From the NCBI GenBank assembly GCA_040882465.1, contig JBBEBG010000040.1, positions 62,818 through 97,050 on the forward strand: a stretch of DNA of 34,233 nt, given 5' to 3'. The notes under the pieces were generated by a model. The model did not search any database and was not told where the DNA came from. It worked only from the letters and a program-made list of their open reading frames with translations. The position numbers and the translations under genes were made by a program. Position 1 is the first letter of the stretch, and each line of letters starts with the position of its first letter. Source of the DNA: Gemmatimonadota bacterium. Lineage in GTDB: Bacteria; Gemmatimonadota; Gemmatimonadetes; Longimicrobiales; Gaopeijiaceae. Of the stretch, positions 2,969 through 12,309 are shown piece by piece.

Positions 2969-3820
2969 ATGAGCGAGACATTCGGGAGAGCCGCCCTTCC
3001 CATCGCCGTTCTCGGCGCGGGAAACCTCGGCGCCGCGATCGCGAGAGGGATCGTGCGATCCGGGTACCGGCCGGCCGCCGAGGTTCTCCTCACACGGCGC
3101 CAACCCGAGCAGATCGCGGATCTGGCTGCGGCAGGACACCCGGTCGGGGACGACAACGCTTCCGCGGTCCGGCGCGCCGGAATCATCATCCTCGCGGTCC
3201 AGCCCAAACACGTCGGCCCCGTTCTGCGGGACCTGGCCGTCGTCCTGGATCCGAGCCAGCACATCATCGTCTCTACCGCGACCGGGGTTTCGCTCGAGAC
3301 GCTCCGGAGGGAGGTCGGTCCCGAGATTCCCGTCGTGCGAGCGATGCCGAACCTCGGGATCCAGACGCTGAACTCGATGACCTGCTTGGTAGCGGACCGC
3401 ACCTCGATGGGCGCGCTCCCCGAGGTCGAGGCGCTATTCGGGCACCTGGGGAAGACGATCCGCATCGAGGAGAGCAAAATGGCGGCGGCCACGGCGCTCT
3501 GCGCGTCCGGGATCGCCTTTTTTCTCCGCGCGATCCGCGCGGCGGGACAGGGAGGAGTCGAGATCGGATTCCACGCGGACGAGGCGATGCGGATGGCGGC
3601 GCAGACGGCGAAGGGTGCGGCGGAGCTCCTCATCCAGAACGAGACCCATCCCGAGACCGAGATCGACCAGGTGACGACGCCCAACGGCTGCACGATCGTC
3701 GGGTTGAACGAGCTCGAGAACCGCGGCTTCAGCTCGGCCATCGTTCGAGCCCTCGTCGTCTCGACTCAGCGAGCTGCCTCGCTCGATCCAACCTCGCAGG
3801 GGGGCTCTCCCCGGTCGTGA
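2969..3820 (+). CDS. proC: Pyrroline-5-carboxylate reductase
   Basis: Catalyses the last step of proline synthesis, NAD(P)H-dependent reduction of 1-pyrroline-5-carboxylate. The 283-residue protein has the N-terminal dinucleotide site AVLGAGNLGAAIARG (about residues 13-27), the 'VRAMPNLG' segment, and a C-terminal helical dimerisation domain with 'AAQTAKGAAELL' and 'TTPNGCTIVGL', which corresponds to the family's TSPGGTTI loop. The usual 'SGSGPAY' is 'CASGIAFF' here, a moderate divergence. GGGGGATC precedes the ATG. The stop overlaps the next start by one base (TGATG), suggesting coupled translation. Confidence 0.92.
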   Translation: MSETFGRAALPIAVLGAGNLGAAIARGIVRSGYRPAAEVLLTRRQPEQIADLAAAGHPVGDDNASAVRRAGIIILAVQPKHVGPVLRDLAVVLDPSQHIIVSTATGVSLETLRREVGPEIPVVRAMPNLGIQTLNSMTCLVADRTSMGALPEVEALFGHLGKTIRIEESKMAAATALCASGIAFFLRAIRAAGQGGVEIGFHADEAMRMAAQTAKGAAELLIQNETHPETEIDQVTTPNGCTIVGLNELENRGFSSAIVRALVVSTQRAASLDPTSQGGSPRS

Positions 3821-4278: not shown

Positions 4279-5627
4279 CCCTTCGCCCCGGGCGGGCGGA
4301 TTTCGCTTCGGTGATCCGTCTCGCCCTCCCGGTCGCCGGAGTCCAGGTCGGTCTCACGGCGATGGGCGTGGTGGACACGCTGATGGTCGGCCGCGTCTCC
4401 GCCGCGGACCTCGCCGCGGTCGCGCTCGGAAACCTCTACTTCTTCGTGGTCGGAATTTTTGGGCTGGGCATCCTCCTCGCCCTCGACCCGGTGATGGCCC
4501 AGGCGGTCGGCGCGGGGGATCGGGAGGCGGCGGCGCGGGGGATGCAACGTGGGCTCGCCCTCGCCCTCGTGCTCGGCGTGGTTACGGCGCTGGTCCTCAT
4601 CCCCGGGGAGGCGGTCTTTCGGTTTGCGCGGCAACCGGCCGAGGTCATCCCGATCGCAGCCGGGTATGCCCGGGGATCCATCCTCGGAGCGGTGCCCTTC
4701 TTCCTCTTCATCGTTTTCCGACAATCGCTCCAGGCGATGGGACGCGTGAGCCCGATCTTCTGGACCGCAGTCTTCGGAAATGTCGCGAACGTGTTCCTGA
4801 ACTGGGTCCTGATCTGGGGCCACCTCGGGGTGCCCCCTCTCGGCGCGGTGGGATCCGCGTGGGCCACCTCGCTCTCTCGCTGGGTGCTGGCAATCGGGCT
4901 CCTCGTGGTCGCTTGGCCCCTGCTCGCCCCTCTCCTGCGTCCCTGGCGCGCGGAAGTCGGAAGGATCGCCCCTCTCCTACGAATGCTCTCCATCGGCATT
5001 CCGATTGGGATGCAGTTCGTGCTCGAGTTCGGCGCCTTCGCGCTGACCGGCATTCTGATGGGGTGGCTCGGGACGGAGCCGATGGCCGGACATCAGATCG
5101 CGCTCAATCTGAGCGTCTTCACCTTCATGGTTCCGATGGGGATCGGGGCGGCCTCGGCCGTCCTGGTGGGGCAGGGGATCGGACGGGGCGACGCTCCGGG
5201 GGCGAGGCGGGCGGCGGGGGCGTCCCTTTCGCTCGCCCTCGCCTTCATGTCGGCCGCGGCGCTCGTCTTCCTTTTCTTTCCCGAGCCGCTCGGCCGTCTC
5301 TTCACCGGCGATCCCGGGGTGGTGGCGATCGTCGCGGTCCTTCTCCCGATCGCGGGAGTCTTCCAGATCTCCGACGGCCTCCAGGCAGTGGCGGCGGGAG
5401 TCCTCCGGGGCGCCGGCGATACACGCGTCCCCATGCTCGCCAACATTCTTGGGTTCTGGCTCGTGGGCTTGCCGGTCTCCGGGTTCCTGGGCTTTGGCCT
5501 GGGGTGGGGACCCGCCGGGCTCTGGTGGGGGCTCGCGGCCGGGCTGGCGGCCGTGGCCGCACTCCTTCTCCTCCGGGTCCGCGTCCGATTCCGGCGCGAC
5601 CTCGAGCGGTTGGCTGTCGAAGGCTGA
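4275..5627 (+). CDS. MATE-family multidrug/toxin efflux transporter
   Basis: A 450-residue integral membrane protein with about 12 hydrophobic segments, the normal size for the MATE (NorM/DinF) family, which exports cationic drugs or metabolites in exchange for Na+ or H+. Family features are 'LALPVAGVQVGLTAMGVVDTLMVGR' split over the first two helices, 'FRQSLQAMGR' after helix 5, and the repeated pattern in the second half ('GIPIGMQFVLEFGAF', 'GVLRGAGDTRVPM'). It starts at a GTG overlapping the DUF2203 stop (GTGA). Substrate cannot be predicted. Confidence 0.9.
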   Translation: MTLRPGRADFASVIRLALPVAGVQVGLTAMGVVDTLMVGRVSAADLAAVALGNLYFFVVGIFGLGILLALDPVMAQAVGAGDREAAARGMQRGLALALVLGVVTALVLIPGEAVFRFARQPAEVIPIAAGYARGSILGAVPFFLFIVFRQSLQAMGRVSPIFWTAVFGNVANVFLNWVLIWGHLGVPPLGAVGSAWATSLSRWVLAIGLLVVAWPLLAPLLRPWRAEVGRIAPLLRMLSIGIPIGMQFVLEFGAFALTGILMGWLGTEPMAGHQIALNLSVFTFMVPMGIGAASAVLVGQGIGRGDAPGARRAAGASLSLALAFMSAAALVFLFFPEPLGRLFTGDPGVVAIVAVLLPIAGVFQISDGLQAVAAGVLRGAGDTRVPMLANILGFWLVGLPVSGFLGFGLGWGPAGLWWGLAAGLAAVAALLLLRVRVRFRRDLERLAVEG

Positions 5628-5675
5628 TGGAGAACCAGGAATGATCCGGATCGCGGTTGGCCCGAAGGTGGGATC

Positions 5676-6062
5676 ATGACGGAAGAGCGTTGGATCGAGA
5701 CGCGGAGGGGCGGGCTCTTTTTCGTGAACGCCCTCCTCATCTTTCCGGAGGTGATGGTTCTCTTTCCCCTACTGACGCGCGTCATCGTCCGGGCGGGAGG
5801 CGGCCTCGCGCGGTTAGCACCGATCCTCGACACCTTCCCGACGATCGCTGAGTACCTCCTTCCGCGGATCGGCTGGATCCTCCTCCTTCCGATCGGGCTC
5901 GTAGCGTACAACCTGAGCCTGGAGCGGGCGCTCGTTCCCCGGCTCGCCCTCGCCCTCTTTCTTCTGGTCCACCTCGTCTTCCTCGGGTGGACCGTCGCCG
6001 TCTGGACCGGTCTTCTTCCTCCCGTGCTCCCCGGTGGACCCCCGCCCCTTGGGTCTCCCTGA
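5676..6062 (+). CDS. Small membrane protein of unknown function
   Basis: A 128-residue protein with three likely membrane segments: about residues 13-38, 60-80 and 88-112. The last residues are Pro/Gly-rich. I do not recognise a family. AAGGTGGG lies just before the ATG at a workable distance. It follows the MATE gene by 48 nt and is probably in the same transcript; a 12-codon mini-frame (5641-5679) lies between them. It converges on murB with only 3 nt between stop codons. Confidence 0.7.
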   Translation: MTEERWIETRRGGLFFVNALLIFPEVMVLFPLLTRVIVRAGGGLARLAPILDTFPTIAEYLLPRIGWILLLPIGLVAYNLSLERALVPRLALALFLLVHLVFLGWTVAVWTGLLPPVLPGGPPPLGSP

Positions 6063-6065
6063 GGG

Positions 6066-7025
6066 TCAGGGCGTTCCGAAATCACCGATGAAGGAGATCT
6101 CCGGGACGAGCTCGTGCCCGAGTTGTCGAAGGACCGTTTCGCGGGCGAGATCCACGAGCGCGCATACCTCGGCCGCCGTCGCGCCCCCGAGGTTCACGAT
6201 GATGTTCGCGTGTTTGTGGAAGATGGCGGCCGCGCCAAAGACCCGCCCCTTGAGTCCACACTCGTCAATAAGGCGCCCGGCGCCGATTCCCTCGAGCTTT
6301 CGAAAGATGGATCCGACGCAGGGGTAGAGCCAAAGGTCGGGGTGCCGCTCGTCGCGCCAGGCCAGATTCTCCCGAACGACCCGACGCAACTCGTCGAGGG
6401 GGGAGGAATCGAGGCGGAAAGTCGCAGTGAGGACGATGTCGCGCCGCCGTTGGAGGATCGAGCGGTCGTACCCGAACTCGAAATAGTCGGCGCCGACCGT
6501 GCGCCGCTCCCCCTCCTCGCTCAGAATCTCCGCGGACTCGAGGACTTCCTCGATGAATACGGTGCGATCCCGTGCGGGCTCCGGGGAGAGGAAGTGGAGA
6601 TTCTGCCAGAGCGCCCCCCCCACCGTGCTGGGGATTCCGACGAAGTGATGAAGGCCGCCCAGCTCTCGGCGTAGGGTGGCCTGGATGAGATCCGGGAAAC
6701 ACTCGACTCCGGCTCCGGCCCGGACCCTTCCGTCGTCGAGAAAGTGGATTCCCCCGACCTCGGAGCGGATGACGAGCCCGCGGAATCCCGCGTCCGCCAC
6801 GAGGATGTTCGCCCCCCGGCCGAGGAGGAAGTGAGGGAGACCGAGCTCGCGAGCCGCGGCCACCGCCCGGACAAGCTCGTCCGCGGTCCGGGCCCGGACG
6901 AAGAGATCCGCCGGACCCCCGATGCGAAAGGTCGTGAACGGGGAGAGGAGGATCTCCCGCTCCAGGGGGAGGTTGCCCAGCCGCTCCTGGAGCGCTTCCA
7001 CGGGGTGAGGGGTCGGCTTGGCCAT
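6066..7025 (-). CDS. murB: UDP-N-acetylenolpyruvoylglucosamine reductase
   Basis: Second committed step of peptidoglycan precursor synthesis: FAD- and NADPH-dependent reduction of UDP-GlcNAc-enolpyruvate to UDP-MurNAc. The 319-residue protein has the FAD-binding segment 'TTFRIGGPADLFV' (about 31-43), 'LGRGANILVADAGF' (68-81), the 'GIPSTVGGALWQN' loop (130-142), the catalytic serine in 'CVGSIFRK' (Ser239) and the catalytic glutamate in 'LVPEISFIG' (Glu309). The ATG at 7025 has no Shine-Dalgarno but a -10-like TAGTTT sits 7 nt ahead, so the message may be leaderless. An upstream GTG at 7079 is in frame but has no ribosome site either. Confidence 0.92.
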   Translation of the reverse strand: MAKPTPHPVEALQERLGNLPLEREILLSPFTTFRIGGPADLFVRARTADELVRAVAAARELGLPHFLLGRGANILVADAGFRGLVIRSEVGGIHFLDDGRVRAGAGVECFPDLIQATLRRELGGLHHFVGIPSTVGGALWQNLHFLSPEPARDRTVFIEEVLESAEILSEEGERRTVGADYFEFGYDRSILQRRRDIVLTATFRLDSSPLDELRRVVRENLAWRDERHPDLWLYPCVGSIFRKLEGIGAGRLIDECGLKGRVFGAAAIFHKHANIIVNLGGATAAEVCALVDLARETVLRQLGHELVPEISFIGDFGTP

Positions 7026-8187: not shown

Positions 8188-8216
8188 TTGACCAGGGAAG
8201 ATAACCCCCATAGAAT
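8188..8216 (+). promoter_or_regulatory. Sigma-70-type promoter of the metal ABC operon
   Basis: TTGACC (8188-8193) and TAGAAT (8211-8216) are separated by exactly 17 nt, the best vegetative promoter match in the window. Transcription would start near 8223. The palindrome at 8216-8229 covers the end of the -10 element and the start site. Confidence 0.7.
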
Positions 8217-8229
8217 TAGGCTAGCCTAA
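8216..8229. promoter_or_regulatory. DtxR/IdeR/MntR-type operator (perfect palindrome)
   Basis: TTAGGCTAGCCTAA is a perfect 14-bp palindrome and closely matches the half-site pattern (TTAGG...CCTAA) of DtxR-superfamily iron/manganese repressor boxes. It overlaps the -10 element and start site of the ABC operon promoter, a position where a metal-loaded repressor would block RNA polymerase. Confidence 0.72.
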
Positions 8230-8237
8230 AGTTCACA

Positions 8238-8251
8238 TTAGCTTGCCCTAA
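8238..8251. promoter_or_regulatory. Second, degenerate DtxR-type operator
   Basis: TTAGCTTGCCCTAA matches the first operator at 10 of 14 positions and keeps the outer TTAG...CTAA arms. It begins 22 bp after the first box, about two helical turns, so two repressor dimers could bind the same face of the DNA. Confidence 0.5.
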
Positions 8252-8283: not shown

Positions 8284-9285
8284 ATGAGACTCGGTTTCCA
8301 CTGCGCCTGGCGCCCTCCGGCTCCGCGTGTGCCCGCGCTCGGACGCGGGGTCGCGTCTCCGCTGGTCTTCGCGCTTCTCGCCCTTGCAGCGGGGTGCGCC
8401 TCGAACGACACCCCGGACGACGGCCGGCTGAAGGTCGTGACGACCATCGGGATGATCACCGATATCGTGGAGCGGATTGGCGGTGACCGCGTCGCCGTCC
8501 AGGGGCTCATGGGCCCGGGAGTGGACCCACACCTCTATAAGGCGAGCGCCGGCGATGTCCGACTCCTCTCCGAGGCCGAGCTCATCTTTTACAACGGGCT
8601 TCACCTCGAGGCGGCGATGTCGGAAGTCCTCGCCGAGATGAACGGGCGGATCCGGACACGGGCCGTCACCGACGGGATTCCACGCGACCAGCTTCTGACG
8701 CCTGCGGAGTTTCAGGGGCAATACGATCCCCACGTTTGGTTCGACGTGCGCCTCTGGATGTCCGCGGCGAGGACGGTCGAAGAGACGCTCCGCGAGGTGG
8801 ATCCGGAAGGCGCTCCGCTCTTCGCGGAGAACCTCGCGGCGCTCCTCGACGAGCTGGAACTCTTGGACGGTTGGGTGCGGAGCCGGGTCCAGGAACTCCC
8901 CGTCGAACTGCGCATCCTCATCACCGCCCACGATGCCTTCAACTACTTCGGGCGCGCGTACGGCTTCACCGTCGAGGGACTCCAGGGGCTCTCCACCGTC
9001 TCCGAAGCGGGGACCGGGGACGTCCAGAGGCTGGTCCGATTGATCACGGAGCGGGGGATTCCGGCGATTTTTGTCGAATCTTCGATTCCCCGGCGGAATG
9101 TCGAAGCGGTCCAGGCCGCGGTGCGGGCGCGGGGAGGCGCTGTCGAGATCGGCGGCCTTCTTTTTTCGGACGCGATGGGGGACCCGGGAACGGACGAGGG
9201 GACTTACCCGGGGATGGTGCGGCATAACGTGAGCACGATCGTGGACGCGCTCCTGGGCGGCGGAGGGGGAGGCGGAAGCGAGTGA
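8284..9285 (+). CDS. Metal-binding lipoprotein of a Mn/Zn/Fe ABC importer (TroA/ZnuA family)
   Basis: The solute-binding component that captures a divalent metal outside the cell. The 333-residue protein has a lipobox LAAGC (Cys38). Four likely metal ligands are visible: His83 in 'DPHLYKAS', His150 in 'DPHVWFD', His216 in '[10 protein letters not shown]' and Asp296 in 'LFSDAMGD'. His rather than Glu at the third position is TroA/ZnuA-like, and the His-rich loop typical of Zn-specific ZnuA is absent. With the MntR/DtxR-like operators, manganese or iron is the more likely cargo. The start is uncertain: the ATG at 8284 has no ribosome site, while an in-frame TTG at 8263 follows AAAGGGAA too closely. 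The C-terminus is a glycine tract. Confidence 0.9.
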
Positions 9286-10067
9286 CCGAGCCGGCAATCG
9301 AGGTCAACGACCTCACGGTTGCCTACAGGGAGAACCCCGTCCTCTGGGACGTGGATCTCTCTGTGCGCGCAGGCGCCCTCACGGCCATCGTCGGCCCGAA
9401 CGGAGCGGGAAAGACGACGCTCATCAAGGCCGTTCTCGGGCTCGTGAAACCGGCGGCTGGGCGGGTGCGGGTTCTCGGAAAGAGGTATCGCGACGCGCGC
9501 GGGGAGGTGGCGTACGTGCCTCAGCGCGGAACGGTGGACTGGGACTTCCCGACTTCCGTGATTGATGTCGTCCTGATGGGGACGTACGGAAAGCTCGGTT
9601 GGGTCCGCCGCCCCGGTGAAAAGGAACGAGCCGCCGCCGGCGACGCGCTAGAGAAGGTGGGGATGGAGGCCTTCGCCGAGCGGCAGATCAGCCAGCTCTC
9701 CGGAGGGCAGCAGCAGCGCGTCTTTCTGGCGCGGGCCCTGGTCCAGGCGGCGAAAGTCTATCTCATGGACGAACCCTTCCAGGGTGTGGACGCGCGGACC
9801 GAGCGTGCGATCGTCGAGGTCCTTCACGAGCTACGGGCGCGGGGCGACACGGTCGTCGCGGTGCACCATGCCCTCCAGACCGTGCCCGAATACTTCGACG
9901 ATGTCGCTCTCCTGAACGTCCGCAAGATCGCCTCGGGACCCGTCGCGGAGGTCTTCACCGAGGAGAACCTCCGCATGGCATACGGCGGGAGGATTCCCTT
10001 CCTTCAGGCGGTTGCGGGGCAGGCGGCCCCGCGAGACCCGGGCGCGCGGGCACCGGGGGCTCCGTGA
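9282..10067 (+). CDS. Metal ABC transporter ATPase subunit
   Basis: The 261-residue ATP-binding subunit that powers the importer. Walker A is GPNGAGKTT (residues 38-46), the Q-loop region is '[15 protein letters not shown]', the signature is LSGGQQQR (139-146), Walker B is VYLMDEP (159-165) and the switch histidine lies in 'VVAVHH' near residue 195. '[15 protein letters not shown]' is typical of the Mn/Zn/Fe (TroB/ZnuC/MntB) group. It starts at a GTG overlapping the previous stop (GTGA). Confidence 0.94.
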
Positions 10068-11200
10068 GTCTTCGGGAGCTCTTCGAACTCCTTCTCTTCG
10101 ACTACACGCTTCGGACGGTCGCGCTGGGCGCGGCGGCACTGGGTGCCGCGGCGGGCGCGCTCGGATGTTTCGCCCTCTTGCGCCGTCAGAGCCTCCTCGG
10201 TGACGCGATCGCGCACGCCGCCCTTCCCGGGATCGGAATCGCCTTCCTGCTCACCGGATCGCGCGCGGCCCCCGTCCTCATTCTCGGTGCGGCGATCGCG
10301 GGGTGGATCGGAACTCTGATCGTTCTCGGGATCGTGCGAAGCTCGCGCATTCCTCCCGATTCGGCGCTCGGAATCGTGCTCTCGGTCTTTTTTGGGCTCG
10401 GCCTGGTCATTCTGACCTTCGTGCAGCGCCTCCCGACGGCGGCGCAGGCCGGTCTCGACACCTTTCTCTTCGGTCAGGCCGCGACCCTTCTCGGCCGGGA
10501 CGTCGCGATGATCGCCTCCGTCGGCGCCGTCGCGCTTCTCTTCGTCGTCCTCTTCTGGAAGGAGTTCAAGCTCCTCGCCTTCGACCCCGAGTTCGGGGCC
10601 TCGATCGGCCTGCCGGTGGTTCGGGTGGAGATTCTCCTCACGACCCTGCTCGTCGTGGCAATCGTGATCGGGCTTCAGACCGCCGGCGTGGTCCTGATGA
10701 GCGCTCTCGTGGTCGCCCCGGCCGCGGCCGCGCGGCAGTGGACCGACTCGCTCGGGATCATGGTCTTCCTCGCCGCTGGGCTCGGCGCCGCCGCCGGGGC
10801 CGGAGGCGCCATGCTGAGCGCCATGGGCGGCGGGATTCCGACCGGCCCGACGATCGTGCTGCTCGCGACCGTGGCGCTCGTGGTCTCCCTTCTCGTCGCC
10901 CCGGGGCGGGGGATCGTCTCCGGACTCCTGCGGAGCTTCCGCACCCGCCAGCGAGTCCGCGCGGACTCGGTCCTCGCGGACCTCTATGCCCTTGCCGCCC
11001 AACACGGGGAGGGTACGGAGCATGCGCACCCCGTTGCGGTGCTCCGGGCCATGCAGCCACGGGCCAACGGCGTGGAGGGAAGTCTGCGCGCGCTCGCCGA
11101 GATGGGGTGGGCGCGCGAGTCCCGACCCGGGGCCTGGACGCTCACGCGGAGCGGCGTCGAGCGCGCGCGCACCCTTTTTCTCCCGGAGCACGACGCGTGA
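10064..11200 (+). CDS. Metal ABC transporter permease with C-terminal winged-helix-like domain
   Basis: A 378-residue permease of the ABC-3 (TroC/TroD, ZnuB) family. Residues about 15-290 hold 8-9 hydrophobic segments with the family signatures '[24 protein letters not shown]' (in two parts around 32-56) and '[11 protein letters not shown]' (216-226). After 'APGRG' (about 283) the protein continues for some 90 soluble residues instead of ending. Residues about 297-376 read as a winged helix: '[17 protein letters not shown]', 'HPVAVLRAM', a recognition-helix-like '[14 protein letters not shown]', then a wing '[18 protein letters not shown]'. This resembles DtxR/MarR-type domains. The GTG start overlaps the ATPase stop by 4 nt. 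Confidence 0.9.
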
Positions 11201-12309
11201 CCTCGGCCGATCTGGAGATCCAGCTGATCGCCGTGGTCGTGGCGGTCACCTGCGCCCTCCCCGGGACCTTCCTCGTATTGCGGAAGCTCGCCCTGATGAG
11301 CGACGCGATCTCGCACTCGATCCTTCTCGGGATCGTGCTCGCTTTTTTTGTCGTCGAAGAGATCACGTCGCCCTTCCTCATCGTTGCCGCAGCGGGGACC
11401 GGAGTCCTGACGGTCGCTCTGGTCGAGCTCCTCCTCCGGACCCGGCTCGTCAAAGAGGACGCGGCGATCGCTCTCGTATTCCCGGCACTTTTTTCAGTGG
11501 CCGTAATCCTGATCTCGCGGTATGCGGGAAGCGTGCACCTGGACCTGGATGCCGTCCTCCTGGGGGAAATCGCCTTCGCGCCCTTCCGGCGCCTGGTGGT
11601 GGGAGGGATGGACCTGGGGCCGGAGAGCCTCTGGCTCATGGGAGGGATTCTGGCGTTCAACCTCCTTGCCGTCGTCGTCTTCTACAAGGAGCTGAAACTC
11701 TCGACCTTCGATGCCGGCCTCGCGGCGGCCCTTGGATTTTCCCCGGTCCTCCTCCACTACGTGTTCATGGGGATGGTCTCGGTGACGGCGGTCGGCGCTT
11801 TCGATGCCGTCGGCTCGATTCTCGTCGTGGCCCTCATGATTGCGCCCCCCGCCGCGGCCTACCTCCTCACCGACAGGCTCCCCGTGCTCCTCGCCGGAAG
11901 CACGCTCATCGGCGCGGGATCCGCGATCTCGGGGTTCTGGATGGCGCGATGGCTCGACGCCTCGATCGCCGGCTCGATGGCCGTCATGGCGGGAATGGCG
12001 TTTCTCGCGGCCCTCCTCTTCGCACCGGAGAGGGGGCTGGTGGCGGGAACGCGGAGGAAGGCCGGACAGCGGATCGAATTCGCCGGCCTCATGCTCACGA
12101 TCCACCTTCTCCACCACGAAGACGGGGCCGGGGCGCTGGAAGAGAACCGCGTTGCGCACCTCGGGGAGCACCTCCGATGGACTGCCGACTTCGCGCAGCG
12201 GGTGGTTCGACGTGCCGAACGGGAAGGATTCGTGACCCGGGATGCCGGGGATCTCCTGCGGTTGACCCCGCTCGGACGGGAGGTCGCCAGGCACCGGATG
12301 GTCACCTGA
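11197..12309 (+). CDS. Second metal ABC permease, also with a C-terminal winged-helix-like domain
   Basis: A 370-residue ABC-3 family permease. Residues about 8-285 are the membrane domain, with 'GTFLVLRKLALMSDAISHS' (23-41), 'HLDLDAVLLGEIAF' (114-127, as in TroD-type subunits) and 'LMIAPPAAAYLLTDR' (213-227). Residues about 290-369 form a soluble tail: 'IEFAGLMLTIHLLHHEDG', 'NRVAHLGEHLRW', 'FAQRVVRRAEREGFVTRD', 'LLRLTPLGREVARH'. The last two parts look like a recognition helix and wing. The two permeases would form a heterodimeric channel and thus bring two such domains together on the cytoplasmic face. GTG start, 4-nt overlap with the first permease. Confidence 0.9.
   Translation: MTSADLEIQLIAVVVAVTCALPGTFLVLRKLALMSDAISHSILLGIVLAFFVVEEITSPFLIVAAAGTGVLTVALVELLLRTRLVKEDAAIALVFPALFSVAVILISRYAGSVHLDLDAVLLGEIAFAPFRRLVVGGMDLGPESLWLMGGILAFNLLAVVVFYKELKLSTFDAGLAAALGFSPVLLHYVFMGMVSVTAVGAFDAVGSILVVALMIAPPAAAYLLTDRLPVLLAGSTLIGAGSAISGFWMARWLDASIAGSMAVMAGMAFLAALLFAPERGLVAGTRRKAGQRIEFAGLMLTIHLLHHEDGAGALEENRVAHLGEHLRWTADFAQRVVRRAEREGFVTRDAGDLLRLTPLGREVARHRMVT

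What the first reader, a model, noticed from the sequence alone, without database searches (positions are those of the whole stretch)
8188..8251. DtxR/MntR-like operator pair laid over a near-consensus promoter
Seen: TTGACC-N17-TAGAAT, then a perfect palindrome TTAGGCTAGCCTAA overlapping the last base of the -10 element, then a degenerate copy (10/14) 22 bp on. Known: DtxR/IdeR/MntR boxes share TTAGG...CCTAA arms. Inference: the metal ABC operon is repressed by a metal-loaded DtxR-superfamily protein binding as two dimers on one helix face, and its cargo is Mn or Fe rather than Zn.
Basis: partly seen in the sequence, partly recalled or inferred. Interest (0 to 1): 0.65.

Follow-up and report, generated by a model that had tools for sequence, protein, structure and literature searches.

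The report
Manganese/iron repressor operators before metal transporter
A Gemmatimonadota bacterium carries two copies of a short DNA palindrome over the promoter of its metal-import genes; the pair is kept at exactly the same spacing in its relatives and most likely lets a manganese/iron-sensing repressor of a well-known family shut the genes off, so it is a real but ordinary control element.

Summary
TTGACC-N17-TAGAAT is followed by TTAGGCTAGCCTAA (8216-8229) and TTAGCTTGCCCTAA (8238-8251), 22 bp apart. In the 3.53 Mb genome (Gemmatimonadota by its nearest relatives) TTAGGN4CCTAA occurs once. TTAGN6CTAA occurs three times, two of them here. Thirteen of 14 orthologous promoters with readable upstream DNA keep both TTAG-N6-CTAA boxes at exactly 22 bp; all 16 arm bases are invariant while the flanks are about 28% identical. 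The operon is troABCD-like (nearest solved binding protein: Treponema TroA). The genome has one DtxR-family gene, unlinked, with the Mn-type ligand set Asp/Glu/Glu/His plus a Lys shared with the Mn/Fe-responsive DR2539. In other phyla homologues of this regulator lie directly before troA, and 17 of 20 such genes have an exact TTAGN6CTAA box in front (null 0.1). Each box matches the published 14-bp one-dimer DtxR/IdeR consensus (box 2 with one mismatch), and the 22-bp period equals that of SloR elements. I conclude this is a MntR/TroR-type tandem operator repressing troABCD. Mn versus Fe remains open; Zn is less likely. The principle is known; the instance is new. Side findings: DtxR-like winged-helix permease tails; TroABCD/FeoB exclusion among relatives.

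The parts
8188..8193 (+). -35 element TTGACC
   Evidence: TTGA(C/T) found 26-28 bp before box 1 in 12 of 13 orthologs
8211..8216 (+). -10 element TAGAAT, 17-bp spacer; last base shared with box 1
   Evidence: only loosely conserved in orthologs
8216..8229 (.). Operator box 1, TTAGGCTAGCCTAA, perfect 14-bp dyad; predicted site for one dimer of a DtxR-family repressor
8238..8251 (.). Operator box 2, TTAGCTTGCCCTAA, 22 bp downstream of box 1; predicted site for a second dimer
8284..9285 (+). TroA-like metal-binding protein, ATG at 8284
   Evidence: PF01297; nearest PDB entry T. pallidum TroA 1toa, E 1e-94
9282..10067 (+). ABC transporter ATPase (TroB-like)
   Evidence: PF00005; best NCBIfam models are Mn/Fe ABC ATPases, below cut-off
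10064..11200 (+). ABC-3 permease 1 (TroC-like) with C-terminal DtxR-like winged-helix tail
   Evidence: PF00950; tail hhalign 95.7% to DtxR profile
11197..12309 (+). ABC-3 permease 2 (TroD-like) with C-terminal winged-helix tail
   Evidence: PF00950 (longer frame 10303-12309); GTG start overlaps the upstream stop; tail hhalign 84% to DtxR profile

Best explanation
The pair 8216-8229 / 8238-8251 is a tandem operator for the genome's single DtxR-family (MntR/TroR-like) repressor, encoded in trans on another contig (C26, about 140068-140754). When cytosolic Mn(II), and probably also Fe(II), is sufficient, the metal-loaded repressor binds each 14-bp TTAG-N6-CTAA box as one dimer. The two dimers lie 22 bp (about 2.1 helical turns) apart, on roughly one face of the DNA. 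They cover the 3' end of the -10 element and the start region, which keeps RNA polymerase off the troABCD-like operon. When metal is scarce the repressor leaves and the importer is made. Shown here: the sequences, exact conservation of the pair, promoter overlap, the single DtxR gene with Mn-type ligands, and the association of the same box with homologous regulators next to troA in other phyla. Inferred: binding, metal response, repression and cargo.
For: Rarity in window and genome. Pair at exactly 22 bp in 13 of 14 orthologs, invariant arms, diverged flanks. Exactly one DtxR gene in G000; 18 of 19 TroA-bearing genomes show one DtxR match, and the 19th (61% complete) shows none. Regulator ligands D15/E107/E110/H111 plus H84/E88 and K18, identical in the listed orthologs except one K18 change. 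Nearest solved regulators are 8pvt, 5zr4, SloR and ScaR. Homologous DtxR genes lie directly before troA in other phyla with an exact TTAGN6CTAA box in front in 17 of 20, null 0.11. Published 14-bp TTAGGNNNNCCTAA one-dimer consensus (PMC8464063), SloR 6-6-6 elements 4 bp apart, i.e. a 22-bp period, bound cooperatively at sloABC/mntH (PMC12096823), and a TroR operator upstream of troA in Treponema (PMC2628430).
Against: No binding or expression data. In relatives without TroA an almost identical palindrome precedes a different DtxR-FeoA/feoB operon, so the box alone does not say which family member or metal acts. Three Fur-family genes exist, and a Fur-type Mur is reported at Deinococcus mntABC promoters (PMC12524626). 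The SBP resembles TroA, which also binds zinc (own knowledge). The -10 element is poorly conserved.
Confidence: 0.9

Rival explanations
1. The boxes are bound by a Fur-family protein (Mur or Zur) rather than by DtxR, and the transporter is under Fur/Zur control.
For: Three Fur-family genes in the genome; Fur-type Mur reported at Deinococcus mntABC promoters (PMC12524626).
Against: The box matches the DtxR/IdeR one-dimer consensus and sits before DtxR genes linked to troA in other phyla (17 of 20). The genome's other ZnuA-type operon has a different dyad, TGATAATCGGTTATCA, that looks like a Zur site.
Confidence: 0.05
2. The pair is a DtxR operator but the system handles mainly Fe(II): TroABCD replaces FeoB and the regulator acts as an iron sensor. 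(A variant of the best explanation, differing in the metal.)
For: 18 of 18 TroA-bearing relatives lack FeoB while 91 of 102 genomes without TroA have it (Fisher p 5e-13, not corrected for shared ancestry). FeoB operons in relatives carry the same palindrome. DR2539, with the same Lys, responds to both metals (PMC3327659).
Against: Ligand set Asp/Glu/Glu/His is the MntR type, not Met/Cys/Glu/His (residues as listed in PMC4805248). The best NCBIfam regulator model is a Mn regulator. The own genome does hold one FeoB_C match.
Confidence: 0.3
3. Chance palindromes or a hairpin/attenuator signal without a protein partner.
For: Short dyads arise by chance, and the boxes lie in or near the 5' leader.
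Against: Two copies at fixed 22-bp spacing with invariant arms in 13 of 14 orthologs; 0 of 100 shuffles; no Rfam match.
Confidence: 0.02

Closest known systems
SloR recognition elements at sloABC and mntH of Streptococcus mutans (PMC12096823)
   Same: DtxR-family Mn repressor; 6-N6-6 dyads 4 bp apart, i.e. 22-bp period; overlap the core promoter of an ABC Mn importer
   Different: SloR arms are AATTAA/TTAATT rather than TTAG/CTAA; three elements instead of two
IdeR/DtxR box and its 14-bp half site TTAGGNNNNCCTAA (PMC8464063)
   Same: Box 1 fits the 14-bp one-dimer consensus exactly and box 2 with one mismatch
   Different: The classical 19-bp box overlaps two dimer sites by a 5-bp shift on opposite faces; here two separate sites are 22 bp apart. 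IdeR/DtxR is an iron sensor with Met/Cys ligands
Treponema troABCDR and TroR (PMC2628430)
   Same: Transporter type (nearest solved SBP is TroA), DtxR-like regulator, dyad at the sigma-70 promoter of troA
   Different: Treponema uses one 18-bp dyad and encodes troR in the operon; here the regulator is unlinked and there are two dyads
DR2539 (MntR) of Deinococcus radiodurans (PMC3327659; probably PDB 8pvt)
   Same: Nearest solved regulator is 8pvt by sequence; same Lys in place of B. subtilis MntR Glu11
   Different: Reported target is mntH with one inverted-repeat region

Membership tests
DtxR-family (MntR/TroR/IdeR type) operator | Inverted TTAGG-like arms around a 4-6 bp centre (14-bp TTAGGNNNNCCTAA per dimer) | tested here: met
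   Box 1 exact, box 2 one mismatch
DtxR-family (MntR/TroR/IdeR type) operator | Overlaps the core promoter of a metal-uptake gene | tested here: met
   Overlaps the last base of the -10; troA-like ATG 33 bp after the end of box 2
DtxR-family (MntR/TroR/IdeR type) operator | Conserved at orthologous promoters | tested here: met
   13 of 14 orthologs with both boxes at 22 bp
DtxR-family (MntR/TroR/IdeR type) operator | Bound by the metal-loaded regulator | not testable with these tools
   Needs gel shift or footprint
DtxR-family regulator, MntR-like subclass (gene on C26) | PF01325 wHTH plus PF02742 metal-binding/dimerisation domain | tested here: met
   E 2e-22 and 1e-30
DtxR-family regulator, MntR-like subclass (gene on C26) | Mn-type primary ligands Asp/Glu/Glu/His instead of Met/Cys/Glu/His | tested here: met
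   D15, E107, E110, H111, conserved in all listed orthologs
DtxR-family regulator, MntR-like subclass (gene on C26) | B. subtilis MntR Glu11 (binuclear site) | tested here: not met
   K18 at this position, as reported for DR2539, so a mixed Mn/Fe response is possible
DtxR-family regulator, MntR-like subclass (gene on C26) | NCBIfam curated MntR equivalog cut-off | tested here: not met
   Best model NF047407 (manganese-dependent MntR) 189 bits against a cut-off of 350
TroABCD-type (cluster A-I) Mn/Fe/Zn ABC importer | SBP, ATPase and two ABC-3 permeases in one operon | tested here: met
   overlapping gene ends 8284-12309
TroABCD-type (cluster A-I) Mn/Fe/Zn ABC importer | Metal specificity | not testable with these tools
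   SBP closest to TroA; NCBIfam scores all below cut-off and split between Zn (AztC) and Mn models

The most novel reading that the evidence does not exclude
Control acts at two levels: the DtxR-type repressor on the tandem 22-bp operator sets troABCD expression, while the DtxR-derived winged-helix tails of the two permeases sense or relay metal status, or touch DNA or regulator, at the transporter itself. In this lineage the system has taken over the role of FeoB.
Probability: 0.1. Interest if true: 0.6.

Novelty: new member of a known kind. Interest (0 to 1): 0.3.

Why it matters
It gives a testable operator and regulator pairing for metal uptake in Gemmatimonadota, where a literature search found no MntR study. 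It extends the 22-bp period known from streptococcal SloR to a GC-rich, distant phylum. It shows one box, TTAG-N6-CTAA, tied to DtxR-troA units across many phyla, which would help predict metal regulons. The permease tails and the TroABCD/FeoB exclusion are leads that go beyond it.

Tried and rejected
Genome scan with one mismatch gave seven further weak sites outside this locus; in a rough ORF check two lie inside coding-like frames and none was tied to a metal gene. The regulator gene has no box in front of it (best score 7 of 10 in the 3.2 kb around it), so autoregulation by this box is not supported. Pattern scan of viral contigs gave 106 stretches that were not followed up and are uninformative. 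No Rfam element. Literature on Gemmatimonadota MntR gave nothing relevant, and on DtxR-permease fusions gave nothing. The weak Nramp match at C27 (40 bits) was not pursued. A structure prediction was not run because sequence matches to solved DtxR-family proteins were already strong.

Full report
Observation. TTGACC is at 8188-8193 and TAGAAT at 8211-8216, with a 17-nt spacer. TTAGGCTAGCCTAA is at 8216-8229 and TTAGCTTGCCCTAA at 8238-8251. The offset is 22 bp. The promoter is the only sigma-70-like match in the region, against 0.1 in shuffles. TTAGN6CTAA occurs twice in the 34-kb window and both are these boxes; 0.02 are expected and no shuffle of 100 had two. In the whole genome (3.53 Mb, 99.6% complete) TTAGGN4CCTAA occurs once and TTAGN6CTAA three times, two of them here.

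Genes. Downstream, 8284-12309 encodes a ZnuA/TroA-type binding protein, an ABC ATPase and two ABC-3 permeases with overlapping ends. The nearest solved binding protein is Treponema pallidum TroA (E 1e-94). The nearest named relatives are Gemmatimonadetes genomes, so the host is taken to be Gemmatimonadota.

Conservation. Nineteen of 121 genomes of the same family carry the binding protein. In 14 of them the upstream DNA is readable. Thirteen have two TTAG-N6-CTAA boxes exactly 22 bp apart. The fourteenth (L140) has one box, and its binding-protein frame holds a TGA. Across the thirteen, all 16 arm bases are invariant, while flanking DNA is on average 28% identical. TTGA(C/T) stands 26-28 bp before box 1 in 12 of 13, and the -10 is looser. 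Positions 5 and 10, G and C in box 1, vary, so the conserved core is TTAG-N6-CTAA.

Regulator. The genome has one gene above cut-off for both DtxR domains, on C26, not linked to the operon. Its best solved matches are 8pvt (described there as an iron-dependent repressor, probably DR2539), 5zr4 (a metal-dependent regulator, probably the M. tuberculosis MntR), and further down SloR and ScaR (the two 'probably' names are own knowledge). Its primary ligands are D15, E107, E110 and H111, the set listed for B. subtilis MntR (Asp8, Glu99, Glu102, His103) rather than the Met/Cys set of DtxR (PMC4805248). At the Glu11 position it has K18, as reported for DR2539, which answers to both Mn(II) and Fe(II) (PMC3327659). 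All listed orthologs keep these residues apart from one K18 change. The best NCBIfam model is a manganese-dependent MntR, below its cut-off. In the 19 genomes with the transporter the DtxR search gives one match in 18 and none in one (61% complete). If a DtxR-family protein binds the box, it is therefore very probably this one.

Link between box and regulator elsewhere. In other phyla (loci titled Thermodesulfobacteriota, Dadabacteria, Anaerolineae, Rhodothermaceae, Meiothermus and others) homologues of this regulator lie directly upstream of the troA homologue. Of 20 such genes with upstream DNA, 17 have an exact TTAGN6CTAA within 250 bp of their start. A first-order Markov null gives 0.11, the reversed pattern 0, and TTAG is the commonest N6 dyad arm among all four-base arms. 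The regulator's start was estimated from the alignment, so distances are approximate.

Mechanism. A 14-bp TTAGGNNNNCCTAA is the published one-dimer site of IdeR/DtxR (PMC8464063). SloR of Streptococcus mutans binds 18-bp 6-6-6 elements 4 bp apart, a 22-bp period, cooperatively, at promoters of an ABC Mn importer and mntH (PMC12096823). TroR of Treponema denticola is a repressor with a dyad at a sigma-70 promoter before troA (PMC2628430). The simplest account is that two dimers of the metal-loaded regulator sit on one face, over the -10 end and start region, and exclude RNA polymerase. The 19-bp DtxR/IdeR arrangement, two dimers shifted by 5 bp on opposite faces, does not fit; two separate sites do.

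Metal. Mn, Fe or both fit; Zn is less likely. The same genome has a second ZnuA-type operon (C25) whose best match is the zinc protein AztC, below cut-off, and whose start region holds TGATAATCGGTTATCA, a dyad that looks like a Zur site. AztC is also the top, sub-threshold NCBIfam match of the window's own binding protein, so that model does not separate the two. In the family, all 18 other genomes with TroA lack FeoB, and 91 of 102 without TroA have it, so TroABCD may stand in for FeoB. Shared ancestry inflates that statistic, some genomes are incomplete, and the own genome does hold one FeoB_C match (C3). In FeoB genomes of genera g2 and g3 the family's TTAGGC..GCCTAA palindrome lies before a DtxR-family gene, in the one locus read in full a DtxR-FeoA fusion followed by feoB, so the box does not by itself name the metal.

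Verdict. The finding is real, and its interpretation holds on every point that could be computed. It is a new instance of a known kind of element. Interest is modest; the permease tails and the FeoB exclusion are the more unusual leads.

Noticed in passing
window 10064-11200 and 11197-12309 (C-terminal ends); L093 about 5593-6084: Both permeases end in cytosolic winged-helix tails related to the DtxR HTH (hhalign 95.7% and 84%). In L093 the same permease carries a longer DtxR-like unit including a metal-site motif.
   Followed up: partly
family genomes G001-G120: TroABCD and FeoB are nearly mutually exclusive: 18 of 18 TroA-bearing relatives lack FeoB_C, 91 of 102 others have it.
   Followed up: partly
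L095-L117, L119-L124: In genera g2 and g3 a single TTAGGC..GCCTAA palindrome lies before a DtxR-family gene in 29 of 30 loci (L118 is the exception); in L104 that gene has a FeoA-like end and is followed by feoB.
   Followed up: partly
L182 about 3645-3665 (minus strand): TGATAATCGGTTATCA, a Zur-like dyad at the start of the genome's other ZnuA-type operon, which begins with an outer-membrane-barrel-like protein.
   Followed up: no
window about 8198-8207: The -35/-10 spacer holds a conserved AAGGTAAC-like stretch in many orthologs, as conserved as the -35 itself; unexplained.
   Followed up: no
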